From: Thermosediminibacter oceani DSM 16646
Lineage (GTDB): Bacteria > Bacillota > Thermosediminibacteria > Thermosediminibacterales > Thermosediminibacteraceae
NCBI RefSeq assembly: GCF_000144645.1
Contig: NC_014377.1
Span: 1,550,001-1,614,000 of the forward strand
Direction of reading: 5' to 3'
Length of the DNA: 64,000 bases
The notes beneath the pieces are model-generated. The model made no database searches. It worked only from the letters and a program-made list of their open reading frames with translations, and had not been told where the DNA came from. The position numbers and the translations under genes are program-made. This document shows, one piece after another, positions 742 through 56,987 of this stretch. Position 1 is the stretch's first letter; every line of letters starts with the position of its first letter.

Positions 742-1047
742 TTATATTTCATTTTCTACCCGGTGTTTCTGGAAGCACTCGCTGCAGTATACGGGCCTGT
801 CGTTTCTCGGCTTAAAGGGAACCTTTGTTTCTGCACCGCAGTCCGCACACACAGCATCGTATAGAGTCCTCTGGCCCTTCTTCGCGCCGAAGTCCCTCCT
901 GCTGGCTTTTCTTGCGTCGCGGCACGGCTTGCAGCGGCTGGGCTCGTTTTCAAAGCCCTTTTCTGCGTAGAATTCCTGTTCGCCTGCTGTAAAGACGAAC
1001 TCCTTCCCGCAGTCTTTACATACTAATACCTTGTCCTGGAATGCCAT
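742..1047 (-). CDS. Small zinc-ribbon protein (zf-trcl type)
   Basis: A 101-residue protein with two zinc-knuckle halves. The N-terminal half has CKDCGKEFVFTAGEQEFY followed by CKPC, the pattern of the probable zinc-ribbon family zf-trcl (PF13451). The C-terminal half has CADCG and CSEC. That makes four CxxC pairs, enough for two zinc ions. Between them is a basic stretch (RKASRRDFGAKKGQR), consistent with nucleic-acid contact, but no function is established. The ribosome site AGTGAGGGG lies 8 bases before the ATG. The gene stands alone, between its own promoter and terminator. Its leader (1084-1205) folds into a branched RNA whose 3' arm is complementary to the first codons, suggesting control of translation. 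Confidence 0.85.
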   Translation of the reverse strand: MAFQDKVLVCKDCGKEFVFTAGEQEFYAEKGFENEPSRCKPCRDARKASRRDFGAKKGQRTLYDAVCADCGAETKVPFKPRNDRPVYCSECFQKHRVENEI

Positions 1048-1083
1048 TAAAAAAACCCCTCACTTTGAATTAAGATTATTTTC

Positions 1084-1205
1084 TGGCATTCCTTAGCTGA
1101 CCTGGTCATACCCTCTTTCGCCGCACTTGCAGGTGAGACCACCCGAGGGAGTCGCTTTGCCCGCGGCCGGCATCGACTTTCAACCACAGACCTAAGTAAT
1201 GCCTA
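1084..1205 (-). ncRNA. Structured leader RNA of the zinc-ribbon gene, family not recognised
   Basis: The minus strand starts about 6 bases after the -10 box and folds into a branched structure. A closing helix joins GGCATTACTTAG (1203-1192) to CTAAGGAATGCC (1096-1085) with one mismatch. Next come GGTC/GACC, then an arm AGTCG/CGACT enclosing a GC-rich hairpin, then an arm CCCTC/GAGGG enclosing GGTG/CACC and GCA/TGC hairpins. The form is that of a riboswitch or regulatory leader with a multi-branched core. I compared it from memory with the glycine, SAM, ydaO, THF, M-box, ZTP, fluoride, cobalamin, guanidine and yybP consensus motifs and found no match. The RNA could also be a stand-alone small RNA. 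The helices are seen in the sequence; the regulatory role is inferred. Confidence 0.5.
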
Positions 1206-1211
1206 TTGTTA

Positions 1212-1240
1212 ATTATATACCTGGAAAATAAAAAAAGCAA
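1212..1240 (-). promoter_or_regulatory. SigA-type promoter of the leader RNA and zinc-ribbon gene
   Basis: On the minus strand TTGCTT (1240-1235) and TATAAT (1217-1212) are separated by 17 bases. The predicted start lies at about 1205, exactly where the folded leader begins. Confidence 0.7.
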
Positions 1241-1260: not shown

Positions 1261-2079
1261 TTAGGTTATAGAGGAGACCCATTGCTTGCAACCGTTATTG
1301 GCAATGTCCGTTATGAATCGCACGAAGCTTTCTTTGCTAAATCTATAACTTTTATTTAAATTCAATTCTACCATATTATCCCATCGTTCGATTTCCTTTA
1401 CAGCATTTTTACAATCCATTTTCCTAAAAGGATACAAGTAAAAATATTCTTTTTCTTCTTTAGTGAAAATTATAAGTATTTTACAGTGTTCTTTAAAAAC
1501 ATCCTCCAATAATTCATTAAAAGACAGGCATTGGCCGTATCCAATATATCCATAAACATTATCACCCGACTCTTTAGAGAATGTTTTTTCCTCTATGAAA
1601 ATAGAGTTTGGAAGTAGAAAATCTATATCTGTCATGGAAAAACCAGCACCTAAATTTTCCCTAAAAAATTTACTAAACGGAGACGATTCTTCGCTACCTT
1701 TTGCCGATGAACATACATACGGGCATACTGTTTTCGTCAAAATAAATCTTTTAAAATCCAAAAAGCTTAGTTCTCTTTCTTCACCATAAAAGTTTTTTAA
1801 GTAAATCTTTTTCTGTTTTTCATCCAAAAATAAAATATACGACCTATGCAAAAAAATATCGTTAATACTGTTTTTAATATATGTAAAATCTTTTTCATTA
1901 AATTCCGCTTTACTTAGTGCCTCTAAAAATATTAAATATCTTGTGTTTACTTTACTATTGTATTTTTTTCTACACGTTATAAAATAAATGTTTTTCTCAA
2001 AACGGATTTTATTTTTTTCGAAAATAGGTTGTAAAATAGATGGTCTACTGCCAAACTTTTCTTCTTTAACTTTATCCAT
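1261..2079 (-). CDS. Third protein of the type III-like restriction operon, possible PD-(D/E)xK nuclease fold
   Basis: A protein of about 272 residues that I do not recognise. It starts 41 bases after the res stop codon and has the same AT-rich character, so it is probably co-transcribed. A block DIDFLLPNSIFIEEKTF resembles the D...ExK core of PD-(D/E)xK nucleases, followed by an aromatic segment YGYIGYGQ. The rest is rich in Lys, Phe and Tyr. The first ATG in frame (2106) overlaps the ribosome site GGAGGTGA, so the ATG at 2079, 13 bases after that site, is the more likely start. It could be a further nuclease, an anti-restriction control protein or an unrelated passenger. The catalytic assignment rests on one short motif and is weak. 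Confidence 0.55.
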   Translation of the reverse strand: MDKVKEEKFGSRPSILQPIFEKNKIRFEKNIYFITCRKKYNSKVNTRYLIFLEALSKAEFNEKDFTYIKNSINDIFLHRSYILFLDEKQKKIYLKNFYGEERELSFLDFKRFILTKTVCPYVCSSAKGSEESSPFSKFFRENLGAGFSMTDIDFLLPNSIFIEEKTFSKESGDNVYGYIGYGQCLSFNELLEDVFKEHCKILIIFTKEEKEYFYLYPFRKMDCKNAVKEIERWDNMVELNLNKSYRFSKESFVRFITDIANNGCKQWVSSIT

Positions 2080-2120
2080 AAGTAAGTCATCTTCACCTCC
2101 TCTCAATGAAATTTTGATAC

Positions 2121-5060
2121 TCAGCAGCCGGCGAGTTCTGCTTTGAAGAAATCGCCGAGACTATCTTTTTCAATCCAAAACTTTTCATACTCACCCGGCT
2201 TTACCTTATCAGTTGTATAGAACTTCAGGCTTACGGTAACCTCTAGGCCGTTGAAAGTAAACTTTTTCTTCATAAGCCTACCGCTAGCATCCGGTACAGT
2301 AAAAAGCTTCTTATACCCCTCCACCTTCATTTCGTAGTCCACAAAGCTTGTCGCTTTCGGATCTATAAACACTATTTTATATTCGTTCCCTTTCTTTAGC
2401 CAGAATACAAAGTCCGGAATGAACTTCGATAATTCTCCCCTGTTCGAATTAAAATAAGGGATGTAAATATCTACATCGTAGTGTTCGTTCAGCTTGCTAA
2501 ACATCCACCAATCGCAGCATCTGTCTATTTCATGCATTACATCGACTAATTCTTTAAGGAAGGAAACCTCGCCCGGCTCGGTAATTATGTTCTTAATCCA
2601 GTCTACCGTACTGCTTTCAGAGTAGACCACGGGGATGTAGTAATGTCTCCCAAGCTTCTGCAGGCAAATATCATCGATTACATTAACCCTTCTGCCGTAC
2701 TTTTTCAGTGCCTGCTCCAGGGTGACACCTTCTTCCTCACTTTTCCGGAAGATATCTTCGTCTGACAGCGGTTTATACTCCTTTACCGCCCGCGCTCCTT
2801 CTTCGAAAGAGGTCTTTTGGTCGATCCTTACTTTGATCTTTCTGAAGTGCACTATCTCGTCCTGCAACGGCTTAAATGCGCTTACATCTTGATCCTTTGC
2901 CCCGACGTATGCCATAAACCTTTGCACAAGCAAATCTACGTCCCTATAGTTTTTGTTTTCATCGAAACGTATAAATTTGCTCTTTTGGCCGACAATCCTT
3001 TTCATCCTATCGTATATATCTGGAGTTGCGCCGTATTTTACTACAAAGACCTCTTCCGGCAGCAAGTCAAGATACCATTTCAGCAAAGTGTAGTTTTGCT
3101 CGCTCATCTCAAACTTCGGCACGGCCTTTTGATTTTCTATCTGCAGCCTTCCGGTATTTTTGTAAACGGGGATTAAGAGCGTCTTTCCTTCCAGTTCATC
3201 TTCATTCGTCCATAAAGAAACTTCTTCAAATTCATCAATTTTCTTGACAAGTTCAAGTTCCGTAAGTATGGTTTCCATTGCGCTTTTATTTGTTGCCATA
3301 ACAAAGACAGACTCAAGCGGTTTCACCAGGTTCTTTATTTCTTTATATAGCTTGTCATCGAGTTCGTTCTGCAGATACCACAGCCTCTTTCTTTTACCTC
3401 TGAAAGGTTCAATCCTCACGCCCCTGCCAATCGCCTGGAGTGCAAACTTCTTTGCGTCCTCGTTAGTTCCTATATTTATGAAGTTTATTATGTTTGGCCT
3501 GTTACTGTCCCAACCTTCATAAAACGTTCTGCTGCCCAGGAGTATATTTATAGGGCTTGCTGGAACATTTAGCTCTTCGAAGTACCCACCTTCTTGTGTT
3601 ATGTGCTTTTCCTCTACTTTGTAAGTTTTCAATCCCTCTTTAATCCATTTCGATATATCCCCCATGCGTATCAGCGCAAAAGGCCTGTCAGAAGTGTCCA
3701 GCTTCAACGCTATTTCGTTGTTTTTCTTATCCACAATCGCTTCTATGTTGCCGGGTTTTTCGGCATTGTATACAAGATTCAGTATGTCATCTTTGGTAAC
3801 TTCAATAATGGACCCGGCAAAATCTCTCAGTGTGCCGTCCGGTTTTCCATCCCCCACTATGTACTCTGTATTCCTGAACTCGTTTGCCAATTCGTTTTTA
3901 GCAGCACTCAGCATGCTGTCGTCAATACGGTGTGCGAGAGCCTCTATCTGTTTAAATACCAGGTACATATCCGCATCCTTTGTATTTACCGAATTGACAA
4001 GAAAAACTGCTAAGGGATTATGATAAGTTGCCTTTTCCTTAATCCCTTCACATACCTTCTTCGTAAACGCAAGCAGTATCAGCGATTTTAAGACAACCTT
4101 TCGCTTCGCCGCCTCGTTCAAATCCTCTTTTTCTTTGAATGCCTTCAGTTCTTCCTGTAACAGCATGATCTTTTTACCAAACCCGGCTTTTACAAATTCT
4201 GCGAGATTAAAGTTGTAAACGGTGGTGGCTATATCAATAAGCGAAGTAAAAGTGGCCGAGAAGTTGAAGAGAAAACCGTTTTTTGAAAGGATGGAGAATA
4301 TATGCTGCCTTTTACTGTCATCCGGATCGCCTTTGTGCGCCTCATCAAGGATAACGTACCAGTTCCCGCCGTCCTTTCCTGCAAGATAATCTTTGTAGTT
4401 CAGCACGTTTTCTTTTCTTTCGTCTGAAATAAGGTCCGAGCGGTAGTAGAATACCTCTATATTTCCGTATGGTTTGGACGACACATGCGCTCTCGCTTTT
4501 TCGAAATCTTTCAAATTTGTCAGGTTAATTCTTTCATGCCAGGTTCTTGCGCGATTGTATTCCTCAATATGCTCCATAAATTGCTTTATCAGGTCTTCCC
4601 TGTAAGTAAGAAAGAGGATTTCCCCCTCTGGAATAAGCCCGCATTTCATTAACCTGTACAGTACTTCTATGAGCTTTACGATCACAAGAGTCTTTCCGCT
4701 GCCTGTTGCCATCCAGAACGACATGCGGTTGGCAAAGTTAAAGAACGGATACTTGCCGCCTGCCACCTGGTAAAACTCATCTAGTACTTTCACGCTCTTG
4801 TTTTTGACCACAATATCAAGCGCAGAGCCCAATTCGCTGTAGATTTCCGCGAATTTACGCTTATCCCGGTTGCAACAACCATAGTATATCCAGAGTACCT
4901 TTATCGCATTTTCCAGTGCTTTCAGTTGATAGTCAAAAAGATTCTTTGCCTCGGAAAACCGCTTATCTATAACATTCCATTCTGCAGGGAAGGCAGCATT
5001 CTCTGCCACACCCTGCAGCACTATGCACGATTTTACCTCTGTCTTCTTTGCTTTTGCCAT
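2121..5060 (-). CDS. res: Type III restriction enzyme, helicase/endonuclease subunit
   Basis: A 979-residue DEAD/DEAH-type protein. The Walker A motif ATGSGKT is near residues 118-124, the Walker B motif LDEAH near 239-242, motif III SAT near 268, and the motif VI region reads QAIGRGVRIEP. At the C-terminus PDFVFWLKK...FIDPKA (P882-D883 and D900-P-K902) fits a PD-(D/E)xK nuclease core. Together these give the ATP-driven translocase and cutting subunit of a type III system, which cleaves when unmodified sites are met. It follows the methyltransferase gene by 3 bases, so the two should be translated as a unit and assemble as a Mod/Res complex. The length matches Res subunits (about 900-1000 residues), and no disruption was seen. 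Confidence 0.92.
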   Translation of the reverse strand: MAKAKKTEVKSCIVLQGVAENAAFPAEWNVIDKRFSEAKNLFDYQLKALENAIKVLWIYYGCCNRDKRKFAEIYSELGSALDIVVKNKSVKVLDEFYQVAGGKYPFFNFANRMSFWMATGSGKTLVIVKLIEVLYRLMKCGLIPEGEILFLTYREDLIKQFMEHIEEYNRARTWHERINLTNLKDFEKARAHVSSKPYGNIEVFYYRSDLISDERKENVLNYKDYLAGKDGGNWYVILDEAHKGDPDDSKRQHIFSILSKNGFLFNFSATFTSLIDIATTVYNFNLAEFVKAGFGKKIMLLQEELKAFKEKEDLNEAAKRKVVLKSLILLAFTKKVCEGIKEKATYHNPLAVFLVNSVNTKDADMYLVFKQIEALAHRIDDSMLSAAKNELANEFRNTEYIVGDGKPDGTLRDFAGSIIEVTKDDILNLVYNAEKPGNIEAIVDKKNNEIALKLDTSDRPFALIRMGDISKWIKEGLKTYKVEEKHITQEGGYFEELNVPASPINILLGSRTFYEGWDSNRPNIINFINIGTNEDAKKFALQAIGRGVRIEPFRGKRKRLWYLQNELDDKLYKEIKNLVKPLESVFVMATNKSAMETILTELELVKKIDEFEEVSLWTNEDELEGKTLLIPVYKNTGRLQIENQKAVPKFEMSEQNYTLLKWYLDLLPEEVFVVKYGATPDIYDRMKRIVGQKSKFIRFDENKNYRDVDLLVQRFMAYVGAKDQDVSAFKPLQDEIVHFRKIKVRIDQKTSFEEGARAVKEYKPLSDEDIFRKSEEEGVTLEQALKKYGRRVNVIDDICLQKLGRHYYIPVVYSESSTVDWIKNIITEPGEVSFLKELVDVMHEIDRCCDWWMFSKLNEHYDVDIYIPYFNSNRGELSKFIPDFVFWLKKGNEYKIVFIDPKATSFVDYEMKVEGYKKLFTVPDASGRLMKKKFTFNGLEVTVSLKFYTTDKVKPGEYEKFWIEKDSLGDFFKAELAGC

Positions 5061-5063
5061 GGT

Positions 5064-7619
5064 TTATTCCCACCACAATAAAGGTTTAAATTCTTTGTAG
5101 TCAAGATCGTCGAAATATTCCCTGCTCCCGTTGTCGAATTCCACATAGTCCATGGTAATCTTCTTTATGCCTTTACCCGTAACGTTCGAGAGTGTTTCTG
5201 CCACATCTACATTTTTGCCTGGGTAAAGCGCACCAAGGTTCAGCCTCACTTTATTGTTTTCTCTATCGATTTCGACGGCCCTCAATAACTTCTTGTCGGC
5301 GAGGAATATTTTCGCCTGGTAAACGTCAAGCTCCGGGATGTCAAACAAGCCCTTCGGATTTTCCACATCCTGATAGTCTACAGTCCTTAGGATGTCTTCA
5401 TACTGTTCAAGTTCGTAATACTTGAAGAATCCCCCTGCGTTTTTCTCATTATATCTTTCCTTAACATCCTTTTCTTTTGAAATTCCCGATTTGTCGTAGA
5501 ATAAAACTTTCTTCATCCTCGGCAGGACTACGGTATAAAAGTGCTCACCCATTTCTACTCCGATCCACTTTCTCTTCAGTTTATGCGCTACTGCCGTTGT
5601 GGTGCCGGAGCCGAGAAAAAAGTCCATAACAAGATCGCCTTCTTTTGACGTTGATTCTATAACACGCTTCAGGAGAATTTCGGAGTTTTCTGTTGGGAAT
5701 CCGCAAATCTGGGAATAGCCTGGAATATCAGTCCAGCTTGAATCTAATAGTTCCATCTCCCCCGTCAAGTATTGAGGCATCCCTTGAACTTTATTCCCCA
5801 ACATATCGATGTACTCTGCCTCTTCATATATTCTAATTCTCCCTTGCCTTTCCAGTTCCGCAATCCTTTCCTGCACAAAAGTCCAGTGCCTTCCCTTTGG
5901 AGGGTAGAATAAACGCCCCAAAATAATCCTCTCCGGTGGCCTTCGTTCTCCCGGAGAATGCATATTTATCCATTTTTGTTTGCCTTCCCGCTGTTTATAT
6001 TGGGGAACAAAGTAAAAATCGCTGTCCTTTGAGTAAAAAAACAAACTATCAGTGGCTACATTATAACCTCTAACCCCTGCAAAAATTTTCTTTGTCCTGT
6101 TAACTACTATCTCATTCCTGAAATTCTCTTCTCCAAACACCTTATTCATTAACAGCCTGACATACATATTACCGTTATAATCGCACCTAACAAAAATACT
6201 CCCTCTTTTATTCAACAATTCCTTCCCTAAACTGATCCTGTTTTCCAGCATGGTAATCCATGTAGAGTCCTTAAACTTGACCGTGTAGTAATAATCAGCG
6301 TCCTGTTCTTTGTTGAAGGGGGGATCTATGTAGATAGTCTGCACCTTTTCCTTAAACTTAGGGAGTATTGTATTTAGCGCCTGCCAGTTTTCGCTCTTTA
6401 TAAGCCAGCCGTCAAGCTGGTGGTCCAGGTTGTCAAACAGCGCCAGAATTTCTACCTCGATGTCTTTAAAGTATTTAGTATCGACCGGGAGAAATTTGTA
6501 ATCCTCGCTCAACTTTTTCTTGCCATCAGGATCTTCTTCGATGATTTCGATCCCTTGAAAGTCGCTTTTTACTATACCTAAATCCTTCCATTCCTTCATC
6601 TGTTCCTTCAAACCACCGTGCCGCAGTATCTTTTCCACAACTTCAATGCCGCCTTCCCTGCTGGCTATCCTGTCCAACGTGATCACATAGTTTGAGTTAA
6701 AGGCAAATCTCGGCTTTTCCCATATTTTTCTCAGTTCATCTTCAAACTGGGATATAAAGTCTATCACTTTATAGGCGATCCTCTTTAGCACCTGTAGTTC
6801 CTTTATTCTCTTTTCGGACCAGTTTGTGTCCTGAGAAAAGATGTACTGGTACATCCACAGGTCAAACTGTTCTTTCAAAAATTTGCTTGCATCCTTGCTT
6901 ATGAAGTAATCTACTTCGGCCTGTTTCTCAAAAGTCCTTATCGCTTTATTCAAGGTCTCCTCGGATACCCTGATGCCATTTGCTTTTAATTGCTTTAGTA
7001 TCTCGTTCGCTTTCGTTTTTCTGCCGTTTTCGGCATATATGACTTTAAGAACTATTGTCCCGCCTTTTCCAACTTTCTCGAAGCTATATATCGTTTCCTT
7101 TTTTTCGTTTCCTTTCTTTAGCTCAATACTGGAGGCGTCAAAGAAAAATTTAACACCATCAACTTCCACAGTCATGCTTCTGATAATCCTATCAGTTTTT
7201 ACGTAGTAAAGCATGTGCGTCTTCCAAAATAGCGATACGTCTTCTTTATCCGATATTACCCTCTCAAAACTATGATCATAGGCTTCTACTCTTTTCCACT
7301 TTTCTTTTTCATCTTCGTAAACTCTTTCGTAAACATTGTAGTAAAGCGGAGTATAGGAAAAATAGATGCTTCCGCTTTCCGAAAAGTACCTATGAAAGAA
7401 AGAATAAAGTTTTGTATAAAGTTCCTCTCTAAAATCCGGAAATACAACTAAAGCCCCTTCTATATCACCCATCAGCTTTTCTTTTATTACGCTAAAGTAC
7501 TTCGATTTAGCCTTTAGAAGATTCACATAGCCGGATTTACCTTCTATTTCAGCTCCGACGAATAAATTTTCTAGCGCCTGCCAAAACTTGGTCTCAAAAT
7601 TCTGAATGCTTTCAGACAT
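5064..7619 (-). CDS. mod: Type III-like DNA methyltransferase, modification subunit with long N-terminal extension
   Basis: An 851-residue methyltransferase. The catalytic motif IV, DPPF, is near residues 432-435 and precedes the SAM-binding motif FLGSGTT near 668-674, the beta-class order of adenine-N6/cytosine-N4 enzymes including type III Mod. DPPF (a D/NPPY variant) favours N6-adenine methylation. The roughly 250 residues between the motifs should carry the target-recognition region. The first 400 residues are an extension without a motif I recognise; standard Mod proteins are about 600-680 residues. It is the first gene of the operon and recognises the site for both modification and restriction. 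Confidence 0.9.
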   Translation of the reverse strand: MSESIQNFETKFWQALENLFVGAEIEGKSGYVNLLKAKSKYFSVIKEKLMGDIEGALVVFPDFREELYTKLYSFFHRYFSESGSIYFSYTPLYYNVYERVYEDEKEKWKRVEAYDHSFERVISDKEDVSLFWKTHMLYYVKTDRIIRSMTVEVDGVKFFFDASSIELKKGNEKKETIYSFEKVGKGGTIVLKVIYAENGRKTKANEILKQLKANGIRVSEETLNKAIRTFEKQAEVDYFISKDASKFLKEQFDLWMYQYIFSQDTNWSEKRIKELQVLKRIAYKVIDFISQFEDELRKIWEKPRFAFNSNYVITLDRIASREGGIEVVEKILRHGGLKEQMKEWKDLGIVKSDFQGIEIIEEDPDGKKKLSEDYKFLPVDTKYFKDIEVEILALFDNLDHQLDGWLIKSENWQALNTILPKFKEKVQTIYIDPPFNKEQDADYYYTVKFKDSTWITMLENRISLGKELLNKRGSIFVRCDYNGNMYVRLLMNKVFGEENFRNEIVVNRTKKIFAGVRGYNVATDSLFFYSKDSDFYFVPQYKQREGKQKWINMHSPGERRPPERIILGRLFYPPKGRHWTFVQERIAELERQGRIRIYEEAEYIDMLGNKVQGMPQYLTGEMELLDSSWTDIPGYSQICGFPTENSEILLKRVIESTSKEGDLVMDFFLGSGTTTAVAHKLKRKWIGVEMGEHFYTVVLPRMKKVLFYDKSGISKEKDVKERYNEKNAGGFFKYYELEQYEDILRTVDYQDVENPKGLFDIPELDVYQAKIFLADKKLLRAVEIDRENNKVRLNLGALYPGKNVDVAETLSNVTGKGIKKITMDYVEFDNGSREYFDDLDYKEFKPLLWWE

Positions 7620-47570: not shown

Positions 47571-48881
47571 CTAGTCCTCAAAAACCGTCTGGCTTTCTAC
47601 GTCAATCGTCAGGGCTTTCAAAGCCTTGAGGACCAGCTTGCGCCTGAGGGATTTTTCCTGCTCCTTGGTGAGCGACGGGTTACCCAGCGGGTGCGGTATG
47701 GCCACGGCCGGGACTATCCTGTTGGCGCCCACCGTCATGGAAATCGGCACTATCGTGCAGATATGAGTTGTGGGCAGGCCTGCCCTTTCGAGTTCTTTTA
47801 CCATCGTTGCACCGCAACGAGTACAGGTCCCTCAGGTGGAGGTGAGGATTACGGCCTGGACGCCGTCGGCAATGAGCTCTTTTGCAATTTCCTGGGCAAA
47901 TCTCCTGGCATTTGCCACCGATGTGCCGTTGCCCACCGTGGCGTAGTAGTACCTGTGGAGCTTCCCTATAACGCCTTCCTGCTCCAATTCGCGCATTACG
48001 TCAACAGGCAGAACTCTGTTGGGGTCCTCATTGGCGTAGGTGGGGTCATAACCGCCGTGGGCGGTCTGGTATTTATCGGGAGTAAGGTATTCCACTCCTT
48101 CGATATCGTACTTACCGTACTTGGAAGCGCTGGAAGCCTCAATCTTGTCGGGATTGCCCTTGGGCACTATGCCGCCCGAAGTGACCAGGGCTACAACCGC
48201 CTTCGAGAGATCTTTTACGGCCGGTGCGGGCGTCACCCTGTCGAAGTTGGGCATGGGATACTCCGTGATGAAGGGCTCACCCTTCAGCTTCTTTATCAGC
48301 ATATCTACAGCCCGCTTAGCGCCGTATTCCTCCACGAAAACGTTCTTTCTGATTCCGCGGGGTATGTAACCTTCTTCTTGGGGCGTGCCGATCTGTTCGC
48401 GCTTTAGAAGCTTCAGGGCAAGTTTGGCCATTTTTGGCACCGCATCGCGCATACCCGCAGCCGAACCGGCAGTCTCTATAATGTATACATCTTTTTTATA
48501 TACCTCCACGCCGGGGTTTTCTATAAACATGCCGGTAACGGCGGGTATTTTTAGGGCTTCCCTAACCGCCTTACATACGCTGCCGCAAGCCATCCCGTAA
48601 CGGCCGGCGTTGAAGGCGGGACCGGCGATCACCAGATCCGGATTGTATTTTTTTATACACTCCATAATGTCGGCTATGGCCTCTTCCTGGTGTTCGTTGA
48701 AATACGAGTCGCCGCAGATCACGGTACCCACTATTTCTGCTTCACCGGCGAAGGCGGCATTAAAAGCCATGCCGGGGCCGACAGCCCCTTCCCTATCCTG
48801 CGGGGGTGTGTCGGCCTTGTCCTCGCCTCCTATCTGGCCAAAAAACTGGTTAATGTAATGGACAACCCTGAATTTACCCAT
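47571..48881 (-). CDS. grdB: Glycine reductase complex component B, selenoprotein subunit GrdB
   Basis: 436 residues if the in-frame UGA at 47834-47832 is read as selenocysteine (residue 350), in the context STUGTCTRCGA. The open part before it begins GKFRVVHYINQFFGQIGGEDKAD, the part after ends LTIDVESQTVFED. The sum equals the normal family length, so this is recoding, not a broken gene. GrdB with the pyruvoyl protein GrdE binds glycine as a Schiff base; its selenol helps to release ammonia and pass the carboxymethyl group to GrdA. A hairpin with a GGU loop lies 12 bases after the UGA (47805-47819). ATG start with AAGGAGA. Confidence 0.95.
47805..47819 (-). promoter_or_regulatory. Candidate bacterial SECIS hairpin of grdB
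   Basis: Minus strand CGTTGC, loop GGT, GCAACG, a perfect 6-bp stem starting 12 bases after the UGA codon. The GGU loop recalls the SelB-binding loop of the E. coli fdhF element. Confidence 0.6.
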
Positions 48882-51090: not shown

Positions 51091-51262
51091 CTGTCCTTTA
51101 CCTGAGAGATTCTTTCCCGAATTCTCATAATTCAGGAAATTGCCCCGTCGGCGCCTTGCGGCTTTCCAGAGGCATGTCGGGATACGGTCCTTTTGCCTGA
51201 GAGTTTCATGGCTAAGCCACTTACCCCTTCGGCGCCCCTTAGTGGGGTCTCTCCCGCATCCT
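51088..51262 (-). ncRNA. Tandem glycine riboswitch (two aptamers)
   Basis: Aptamer 1 (minus strand from 51262) has GCGGGAGAGACCCC, GGCGCCGAAGGGG and CTCTCAGGCAAAAGGACC. Aptamer 2 has CTCTGGAAAGCC, GGCGCCGACGGGG and ATCTCTCAGGTAAAGGACAG. Both share the glycine-aptamer core (GGAGA..., GCCGA-GGGG, CTCAGGYAAAGGAC). The pair lies directly upstream of trxA-grdEABCD, so the operon should be expressed when glycine is plentiful. Confidence 0.95.
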
Positions 51263-51306
51263 TCATCCACAGGGCTATTTAGTTTAATAATTTTCTATCC
51301 GTTTAT

Positions 51307-56614: not shown

Positions 56615-56987
56615 CCAAAAAAGAATCGCCGCCGAAAAAGAAAGCTAGCCAGATCTTTTTATTCAGCGGCAGCCATGCTGTTATAATGTAAATGCACCTT
56701 AGACCCTATGGCTTTTGCACCCCTACCTTTCATTGAGTTTACCCTTTTCTCTGTGTATTATTTCTCTTTAATTGATAATTTTAAAATTTATATTTCCATA
56801 TTCCTTAATTTTCCTGCCGATATAGCCGAATACGTAAATATTTAATCCCAAATTATTCCCGAAAAAGGACATAAAAAAGAAATTAATCGTATCCCGAATG
56901 GGAAGGATTAAAAATTTTTTAATAGGGGGGTATTAAAATACCCTCTTATTTACTCTTTAAATAACAAGGGACAAACATAAGGAGGTG
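56615..56987. other. Spacer between the two IS21 elements, no gene seen
   Basis: About 370 AT-rich bases with no frame that carries a ribosome site or recognisable protein. It separates the target duplications of IS21-A and IS21-B, so it is ancestral chromosome sequence between two independent insertions. Confidence 0.6.

What the first reader, a model, noticed from the sequence alone, without database searches (positions are those of the whole stretch)
1084..1205. Branched leader RNA before a zinc-ribbon gene, not matching a known riboswitch that I recall
The leader starts at the predicted transcription start and has a 12-bp closing helix with one mismatch, an inner GGTC/GACC helix and two further arms, i.e. 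the size and form of a riboswitch aptamer. The gene it controls is a small zinc-ribbon protein of unknown function, so the ligand, if any, is unknown too.
Basis: partly seen in the sequence, partly recalled or inferred. Interest (0 to 1): 0.68.

Follow-up and report, generated by a model that had tools for sequence, protein, structure and literature searches.

The report
Miniature raiA (ModT) leader RNA
The leader RNA in front of this small zinc-finger gene is not an unknown riboswitch: it is a cut-down, about 119-base version of the known but poorly understood bacterial raiA/ModT RNA, found only in one order of bacteria, and it shows which half of that RNA evolution could not do without.

Summary
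It belongs to a known family. Infernal gives raiA/ModT RNA (RF03072), 57 bits, E 1.9e-13, over the full model; it falls below Rfam's own cut-off (101.3 bits) because it is a miniature, about 119 nt against roughly 145-308 nt. It keeps P1, the GAAA turn, P3 and pseudoknot pk-1 nearly letter for letter, keeps P4/P5 in reduced, re-paired form, and lacks P6-P8, the pk-2 partner and the conserved GUAA at the base of P5. The miniature, one per genome, occurs in 20 of 22 genomes of its order (Thermosediminibacterales) and nowhere else that I found. Full-length raiA RNAs occupy the same place (fliD-fliS-fliT-RNA-zf_Tbcl, 42-51 nt before the gene) in other lineages, so it is an ortholog. Between two families its core is 97% identical while fourfold sites of the gene are 40% identical: maintained, not decaying. 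It most likely works through the raiA core. Its outer P1 strand can also pair with the zf_Tbcl start codon (7-9 bp): a possible, unproven translation switch.

The parts
1212..1240 (-). sigma-70-type promoter, TTGCTT (1240-1235), 17-nt spacer, TATAAT (1217-1212); start near 1206-1204
   Evidence: sequence; TTGC(T/A)T and TATAAT kept before the RNA in nearly all relatives, full-length ones included
1085..1203 (-). miniature raiA/ModT RNA, 119 nt
   Evidence: RF03072 57 bits, E 1.9e-13, 3e-13 for the whole genome; own model R1 123 bits
1192..1203 (-). P1a 5' strand GGCAUUACUUAG, pairs with 1096-1085
   Evidence: and sequence; CUUAG/CUAAG and GGCAU invariant in the compact set
1182..1189 (-). P1b/P1c 5' strand CUG UGGUU, pairs with CAG 1099-1097 and GACCA 1107-1103; GU 1191-1190 bulged, GGU 1102-1100 internal loop
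   Evidence: raiA consensus, pair counts
1151..1177 (-). P3: P3a GUCG/CGAC and P3b GCC/GGC, with the A-rich internal loop; loop GGCCGCG 1168-1162
   Evidence: all pairs invariant in the 8 counted; same letters as full-length raiA RNAs
1120..1125 (-). 3' half of pseudoknot pk-1, UGCGGC, pairs with GCCGCG 1167-1162
   Evidence: 4 invariant pairs plus an outer pair C-G in one family and U-A/U-G in the other
1111..1150 (-). reduced P4 (CCCUC 1149-1145 / GAGGG 1115-1111) and P5 (GGGUG 1144-1140 / CACCU 1135-1131)
   Evidence: P4 outer pairs U-A and C-G in one family, A-U and G-C/G-U in the other; P5 varies and mostly stays paired
1056..1061 (-). ribosome-binding site GAGGGG
   Evidence: AAAG(U/C)GAGGG kept before zf_Tbcl in most raiA-led loci
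1038..1092 (-). possible start-codon sequestor: GGAAUGCCA (1092-1084, outer P1a 3' strand) with UGGCAUUCC (1046-1038, start codon and codons 2-4)
   Evidence: inferred: 9 bp; 7-9 bp in all compact relatives and in L004 and L073
742..1047 (-). zf_Tbcl protein, 101 aa, two treble-clef zinc-finger domains
   Evidence: PF13451 92.3 bits, PF23477 75.1 bits
704..728 (-). intrinsic-terminator-like hairpin after zf_Tbcl

Best explanation
The leader is a lineage-specific miniature of raiA/ModT RNA (RF03072), transcribed from its own promoter as the 5' part of the zf_Tbcl message. Shown here: family membership, orthology of the locus, the loss of P6-P8 and pk-2, and strong purifying selection on what is left. 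Inferred: it does what full-length raiA RNA does, as a compact tertiary core in which the sharply turned P1/P3 arm docks its loop through pk-1, acting mainly in trans as a ModT-type regulator of growth transition, either as part of the message or cut from it. The lost half would then be stabilising or peripheral. A second, less certain role is local: the outer P1a 3' strand can pair either with the RNA's 5' end or with the zf_Tbcl start codon, so that a closed P1 would favour zf_Tbcl translation.
For: RF03072 at E 1.9e-13 across model positions 1-209. Same miniature in 20 of 22 genomes of the order, one per genome and no full-length copy beside it. Same neighbours (FliD, FliS, FliT before, zf_Tbcl 42-51 nt after, substrate-binding protein next) for 19 compact and, for the zf_Tbcl spacing, 15 full-length RNAs. 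Core identity 97% against 40% at fourfold sites of the gene between the two families. Helices and pk-1 kept with changes on both sides. Trans action, abundance and structure of ModT: PMC11706538, PMC11751092. No terminator-like site between RNA and gene; one after the gene.
Against: Score is below Rfam's curated cut-off. Parts that the cryo-EM paper describes as organising the fold (pk-2, A57/A58 A-minor contact, P8) are absent, so the miniature may not do the full job. No expression data. One genome of the same family has lost the core and keeps the gene, so the RNA is dispensable there. Trans action is shown only for distant full-length RNAs.
Confidence: 0.8

Rival explanations
1. The miniature has become mainly a cis-acting switch for zf_Tbcl translation: a closed P1 leaves the start codon free, an open outer P1 lets GGAAUGCC trap it.
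For: All compact leaders fold with the start codon trapped by the outer P1a 3' strand when energy alone decides. 7-9 contiguous pairs in every compact leader, one pair G-C in one family and A-U in the other; kept by wobble pairs in the nearest full-length locus L004 and kept in G002, where the core itself is gone. In most compact loci the pairing is stronger than 95-98% of synonymous recodings. zf_Tbcl always 42-51 nt downstream.
Against: Not seen in most full-length zf_Tbcl loci (recoding fraction about 0.2-1.0; L007 0.06 and L006 0.10 borderline). The arms are related sequences, so these are few independent events; M-A-F coding already fixes AUGGC. Energies ignore pk-1 and tertiary contacts. 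ModT acts in trans elsewhere.
Confidence: 0.25
2. A decaying relic of raiA RNA on its way to loss, without function of its own.
For: Half the RNA is gone; G002 in the same family has lost the core and kept promoter, outer stem and gene.
Against: Core and P1 tail 97% identical between families whose fourfold sites are 40% identical; reduced P4 and P5 re-paired by changes on both sides. Present in 20 of 22 genomes.
Confidence: 0.05
3. A new riboswitch class unrelated to raiA.
For: Below Rfam's cut-off; not reported in a standard scan.
Against: Full-model match at E 1.9e-13, letter-level identity of the 41-nt 5' core and 3' end to full-length raiA RNAs, and the same gene neighbourhood.
Confidence: 0.01
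4. zf_Tbcl is the RNA's dedicated protein partner and the leader is its binding site (as in autoregulated leaders, or OLE RNA with OapA).
For: Tight, conserved adjacency in many lineages; basic, zinc-finger protein; probing suggests that ModT binds proteins in vivo (PMC11706538).
Against: No co-occurrence: by my count of the listings zf_Tbcl is in 34 of 49 RNA-bearing genomes and 226 of 349 RNA-free genomes of the same 398. It cannot be an obligatory partner in general.
Confidence: 0.1

Closest known systems
raiA motif / ModT RNA, Rfam RF03072 (C. acetobutylicum, C. difficile)
   Same: P1 with GU and GGU bulges, GAAA turn, P3a/P3b with A-rich internal loop, pk-1 between P3 loop and the P5-P4 linker, 3' end CCAGGUCAGC; same locus fliD-fliS-fliT-RNA-zf_Tbcl as full-length members in related lineages
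   Different: 119 nt instead of about 205-210; no P6, P7, P8; no pk-2 partner (CAAA reduced to 2-3 nt); no GUAA bulge at P5; P4/P5 of other sequence; no raiA or comFC gene next to it
raiA RNA 'variant 1' (short P6, 32% of sequences, PMC11751092)
   Same: a reduced P6-P8 side
   Different: variant 1 still has a P6 hairpin and, in the short loci read here (L003, L010, L107), pk-2 letters and GUAA; the miniature has none of these
Translational riboswitches with a P1 strand as anti-sequestor
   Same: a closing-helix strand able to pair alternatively with the start-codon region, at a transcript's 5' end
   Different: no ligand known; the sequestor is lineage-specific and untested

Membership tests
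raiA/ModT RNA (RF03072) | covariance-model match over the whole model | tested here: met
   57 bits, E 1.9e-13, positions 1-209; E 3e-13 on the whole genome
raiA/ModT RNA (RF03072) | score at or above Rfam's curated gathering cut-off (101.3 bits) | tested here: not met
   57 bits; all order members 39-59 bits. A database inclusion threshold, not a structural feature; missed because half the model is deleted
raiA/ModT RNA (RF03072) | P1 with conserved bulges, discontinuous GAAA turn and P3 with A-rich internal loop | tested here: met
   identical or nearly identical letters to full-length RNAs, pairs intact
raiA/ModT RNA (RF03072) | pk-1, P3 loop with the linker after P5 | tested here: met
   5-6 pairs in most, 4 invariant, outer pair changed on both sides between families; published RNA has 7
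raiA/ModT RNA (RF03072) | pk-2 between the linker and J4-1c (C181/A182) | tested here: not met
   J4-1c is 2-3 nt without CA in all compact members
raiA/ModT RNA (RF03072) | P6, alone (variant 1) or with P7 and P8 (variant 2) | tested here: not met
   3-5 nt link pk-1 directly to P4 in the hand-aligned members
raiA/ModT RNA (RF03072) | conserved genomic locus shared with undisputed members | tested here: met
   zf_Tbcl 42-51 nt downstream of 19 compact and 15 full-length RNAs; fli genes upstream of many of both
raiA/ModT RNA (RF03072) | abundant, stable, trans-acting RNA | not testable with these tools
   needs RNA-seq and complementation; known only for other species (PMC11706538)
Riboswitch | ligand-binding aptamer | not testable with these tools
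   no ligand known for any raiA RNA
Riboswitch | expression platform coupled to the aptamer | tested here: inconclusive
   outer P1a strand versus start codon, 7-9 bp, conserved in the order only; SD pairing with P4 (UCCCUC/GAGGGG) holds in one family only and was rejected

The most novel reading that the evidence does not exclude
In this lineage raiA RNA has been pared to its P1-P3/pk-1 core and wired to zf_Tbcl translation through competition between P1a and a start-codon sequestor, so that an otherwise trans-acting RNA of unknown function works as a cis-acting, riboswitch-like sensor whose output gene reports what raiA RNA senses.
Probability: 0.2. Interest if true: 0.78.

Novelty: new variant of a known kind. 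Interest (0 to 1): 0.52.

Why it matters
raiA/ModT RNA is in more than 2,500 species, has cryo-EM structures and knock-out phenotypes (reported in PMC11706538 and PMC11751092), yet no molecular function. A natural miniature that keeps P1-P3 and pk-1 under very strong selection while dispensing with P6-P8, pk-2 and the P5 A-minor bulge is a ready-made deletion experiment: it says where the active core should be and gives a 119-nt construct for probing, ligand screens, pull-downs and complementation. It also shows that a threshold-based Rfam scan misses a whole order's raiA RNA, and the fixed link to zf_Tbcl offers a reporter gene if the cis switch is real.

Tried and rejected
Plus-strand structure: folds with better z (-3.2) but promoter, gene, family match and conservation are on the minus strand. 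SD sequestration by P4 (UCCCUC with GAGGGG): perfect in the window's family, absent in the other family (CUCCCAG), so not conserved. Link between reduction and loss of sporulation: Spo0A and SpoIVA genes are present in most of the order, so rejected. zf_Tbcl as obligatory RNA partner: no co-occurrence. A hidden helix between P1 5' strand (GUCUGUGGUUG) and P3 3' side: predicted by energy but its variants are already explained by pk-1 pairing, so no independent support. rli24 match: 13.9 bits, E 4.8, chance. The original raiA papers (Soares 2024, Weinberg 2017) are not held, so I could not check whether they list this form or the zf_Tbcl link; the accessible papers do not mention either. First alignment of other zf_Tbcl leaders had two rows on the wrong strand; repeated.

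Full report
What is there. The leader lies on the minus strand. Reading 5' to 3': promoter TTGCTT (1240-1235), 17 nt, TATAAT (1217-1212), predicted start near 1206-1204, structured RNA 1203-1085, ribosome-binding site GAGGGG (1061-1056), a run of seven T, ATG at 1047 of a 101-aa protein with two treble-clef zinc-finger domains (PF13451 and PF23477), and a terminator-like hairpin after the gene (728-704). The GGTC/GACC helix is not the one that relatives support.

What it is. At Rfam's curated cut-offs nothing is reported here. With an E-value threshold the stretch matches raiA RNA, RF03072, 57.0 bits, E 1.9e-13, from the first to the last model position, with two large deletions; on the whole 2.28-Mb genome E is 3e-13 and it is the only match. 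The cut-off of 101.3 bits is missed because the RNA is a miniature.

Anatomy compared with the published structure (PMC11751092). Kept: P1 with its GU and GGU bulges, the GAAA of the discontinuous tetraloop, P3a and P3b with the A-rich internal loop, and pk-1 between the P3 loop and the linker after P5. These letters are almost those of full-length RNAs. Reduced: P4 and P5, of different sequence in the two families. Absent: the conserved GUAA at the base of P5 (the A-minor adenines), the linker letters GAGCAU, P6 (and P7, P8), and CAAA in J4-1c that makes pk-2. In the full-length loci read here the RNAs are 145-308 nt; the compact ones match the model over 110-121 nt.

Comparative evidence. 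On eight distinct sequences 95.8% of cells pair, 9 cells differ on both sides; no shuffle of 500 reaches the first value, 2 of 500 the second; sliding the partner drops pairing to 32-46%. Between the two families P4 changes U-A to A-U and C-G to G-C or G-U, pk-1 changes C-G to U-A or U-G, and P5 varies while mostly staying paired. These are few independent events. Core (23 nt) and P1 tail (16 nt) are 97% identical between the families, the P3 3' strand 90%, the P4-P5 segment 58%, fourfold-degenerate sites of zf_Tbcl 40%, and its protein 74%. The core is therefore under strong selection.

Distribution. The miniature is in 20 of 22 genomes of the order, one of them cut by a contig end, one per genome, with no full-length copy beside it. 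A pattern scan of 84,980 species genomes with exact core letters and the short spacing finds 13 contigs; those with a name are Thermosediminibacter, Fervidicola, Thermovorax and Tepidanaerobacter or MAGs assigned to their families, and the others correspond to genomes of the same order found. The NCBI order is Thermosediminibacterales. In 398 genomes of the phylum, 35 have a full-length RNA over the cut-off, 13 the miniature, all in this order, and one a divergent 259-nt form. The genome's size (2,280,035 bases, one contig) suggests Thermosediminibacter oceani, from memory; not tested.

Locus. zf_Tbcl begins 42-51 nt after the RNA, on the same strand, for all 19 compact RNAs and for 15 full-length RNAs of other families; FliD, FliS and FliT genes lie upstream in many of both. 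Other full-length RNAs lie between comFC and the raiA/HPF gene, the arrangement reported as commonest (PMC11706538). So the miniature is the ortholog of full-length raiA RNA at the fli-zf_Tbcl locus. In the window a type III restriction-modification pair has taken the place of the fli genes.

How it most likely works. Shown by others: ModT is abundant and acts in trans in C. difficile, where its loss raises c-di-GMP and lowers sporulation; trans complementation is also reported for C. acetobutylicum (PMC11706538). Inferred here: the miniature does the same with the retained core, made as the 5' part of the zf_Tbcl message since no terminator-like site separates them. zf_Tbcl is not a general partner: by my count it occurs in 34 of 49 RNA-bearing and 226 of 349 RNA-free genomes. 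The order has not lost sporulation genes.

A possible cis role. The outer P1a 3' strand GGAAUGCCA (1092-1084) is perfectly complementary to UGGCAUUCC (1046-1038), the start codon and codons 2-4. Energy-only folding traps the start codon this way in all 18 compact leaders tested. The pairing is 7-9 bp in every compact leader; one pair is G-C in one family and A-U in the other; it persists by wobble in L004 and in G002, which lost the core. Against synonymous recodings of codons 2-6 it ranks in the top 2-5% for most compact loci but not for most full-length loci. I hold this at about one in four or five. Energies leave out pk-1 and tertiary contacts, and P1 forms first during transcription.

Novelty. 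New variant of a known kind. The accessible structure paper divides raiA RNAs into two P6 variants, 32% and 68%, which leaves no P6-less form; the papers that founded the family were not available to me.

Noticed in passing
L073 (genome G002, same family), about 110 nt upstream of zf_Tbcl: The raiA core is gone, but promoter, outer stem GGCAUUC.../...GGAAUGCC, start-codon complement and SD remain: an apparent natural loss of the RNA with its frame kept.
   Followed up: partly
L113, L115, L119, L131, L132, L133 upstream of zf_Tbcl: zf_Tbcl genes without raiA RNA often have other long leaders with CCUCC able to pair with the GGAGG ribosome-binding site and a GCCC/GGGC hairpin between; no Rfam match at E 0.01 and no clear consensus structure from 6 sequences.
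   Followed up: partly
L111 (genome G060): Leader of zf_Tbcl keeps the raiA 3' end (AACCAGGUCGGCUAAG) but not the 5' core: another eroded or highly divergent raiA RNA.
   Followed up: no
G183:C21:8444-8702, locus L118: Divergent 259-nt raiA RNA (50 bits), also before a zf_Tbcl gene.
   Followed up: no
N-terminus of zf_Tbcl, L109-L133: raiA-led zf_Tbcl proteins start M(A/E/V)F.DK and use AAAG(U/C)GAGGG; those without raiA mostly start M(Y/F).DK with ordinary GGAGG sites, as if two ortholog groups differ in leader type.
   Followed up: no
window 56665-56753 (-): c-di-GMP-I riboswitch (39.6 bits); of interest because ModT is linked to c-di-GMP in C. difficile.
   Followed up: no
window 51175-51266 (-) and 47794-47831 (-): Glycine riboswitch (74.9 bits) and a SECIS_4 selenocysteine element (64.3 bits), as expected of a glycine-reductase region (the region is recalled, not read).
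   Followed up: no
window 1261-7619 (-): Type III restriction-like helicase and DNA methylase genes plus a 281-aa protein without a Pfam match, directly upstream of the leader where relatives have fliD-fliS-fliT.
   Followed up: partly
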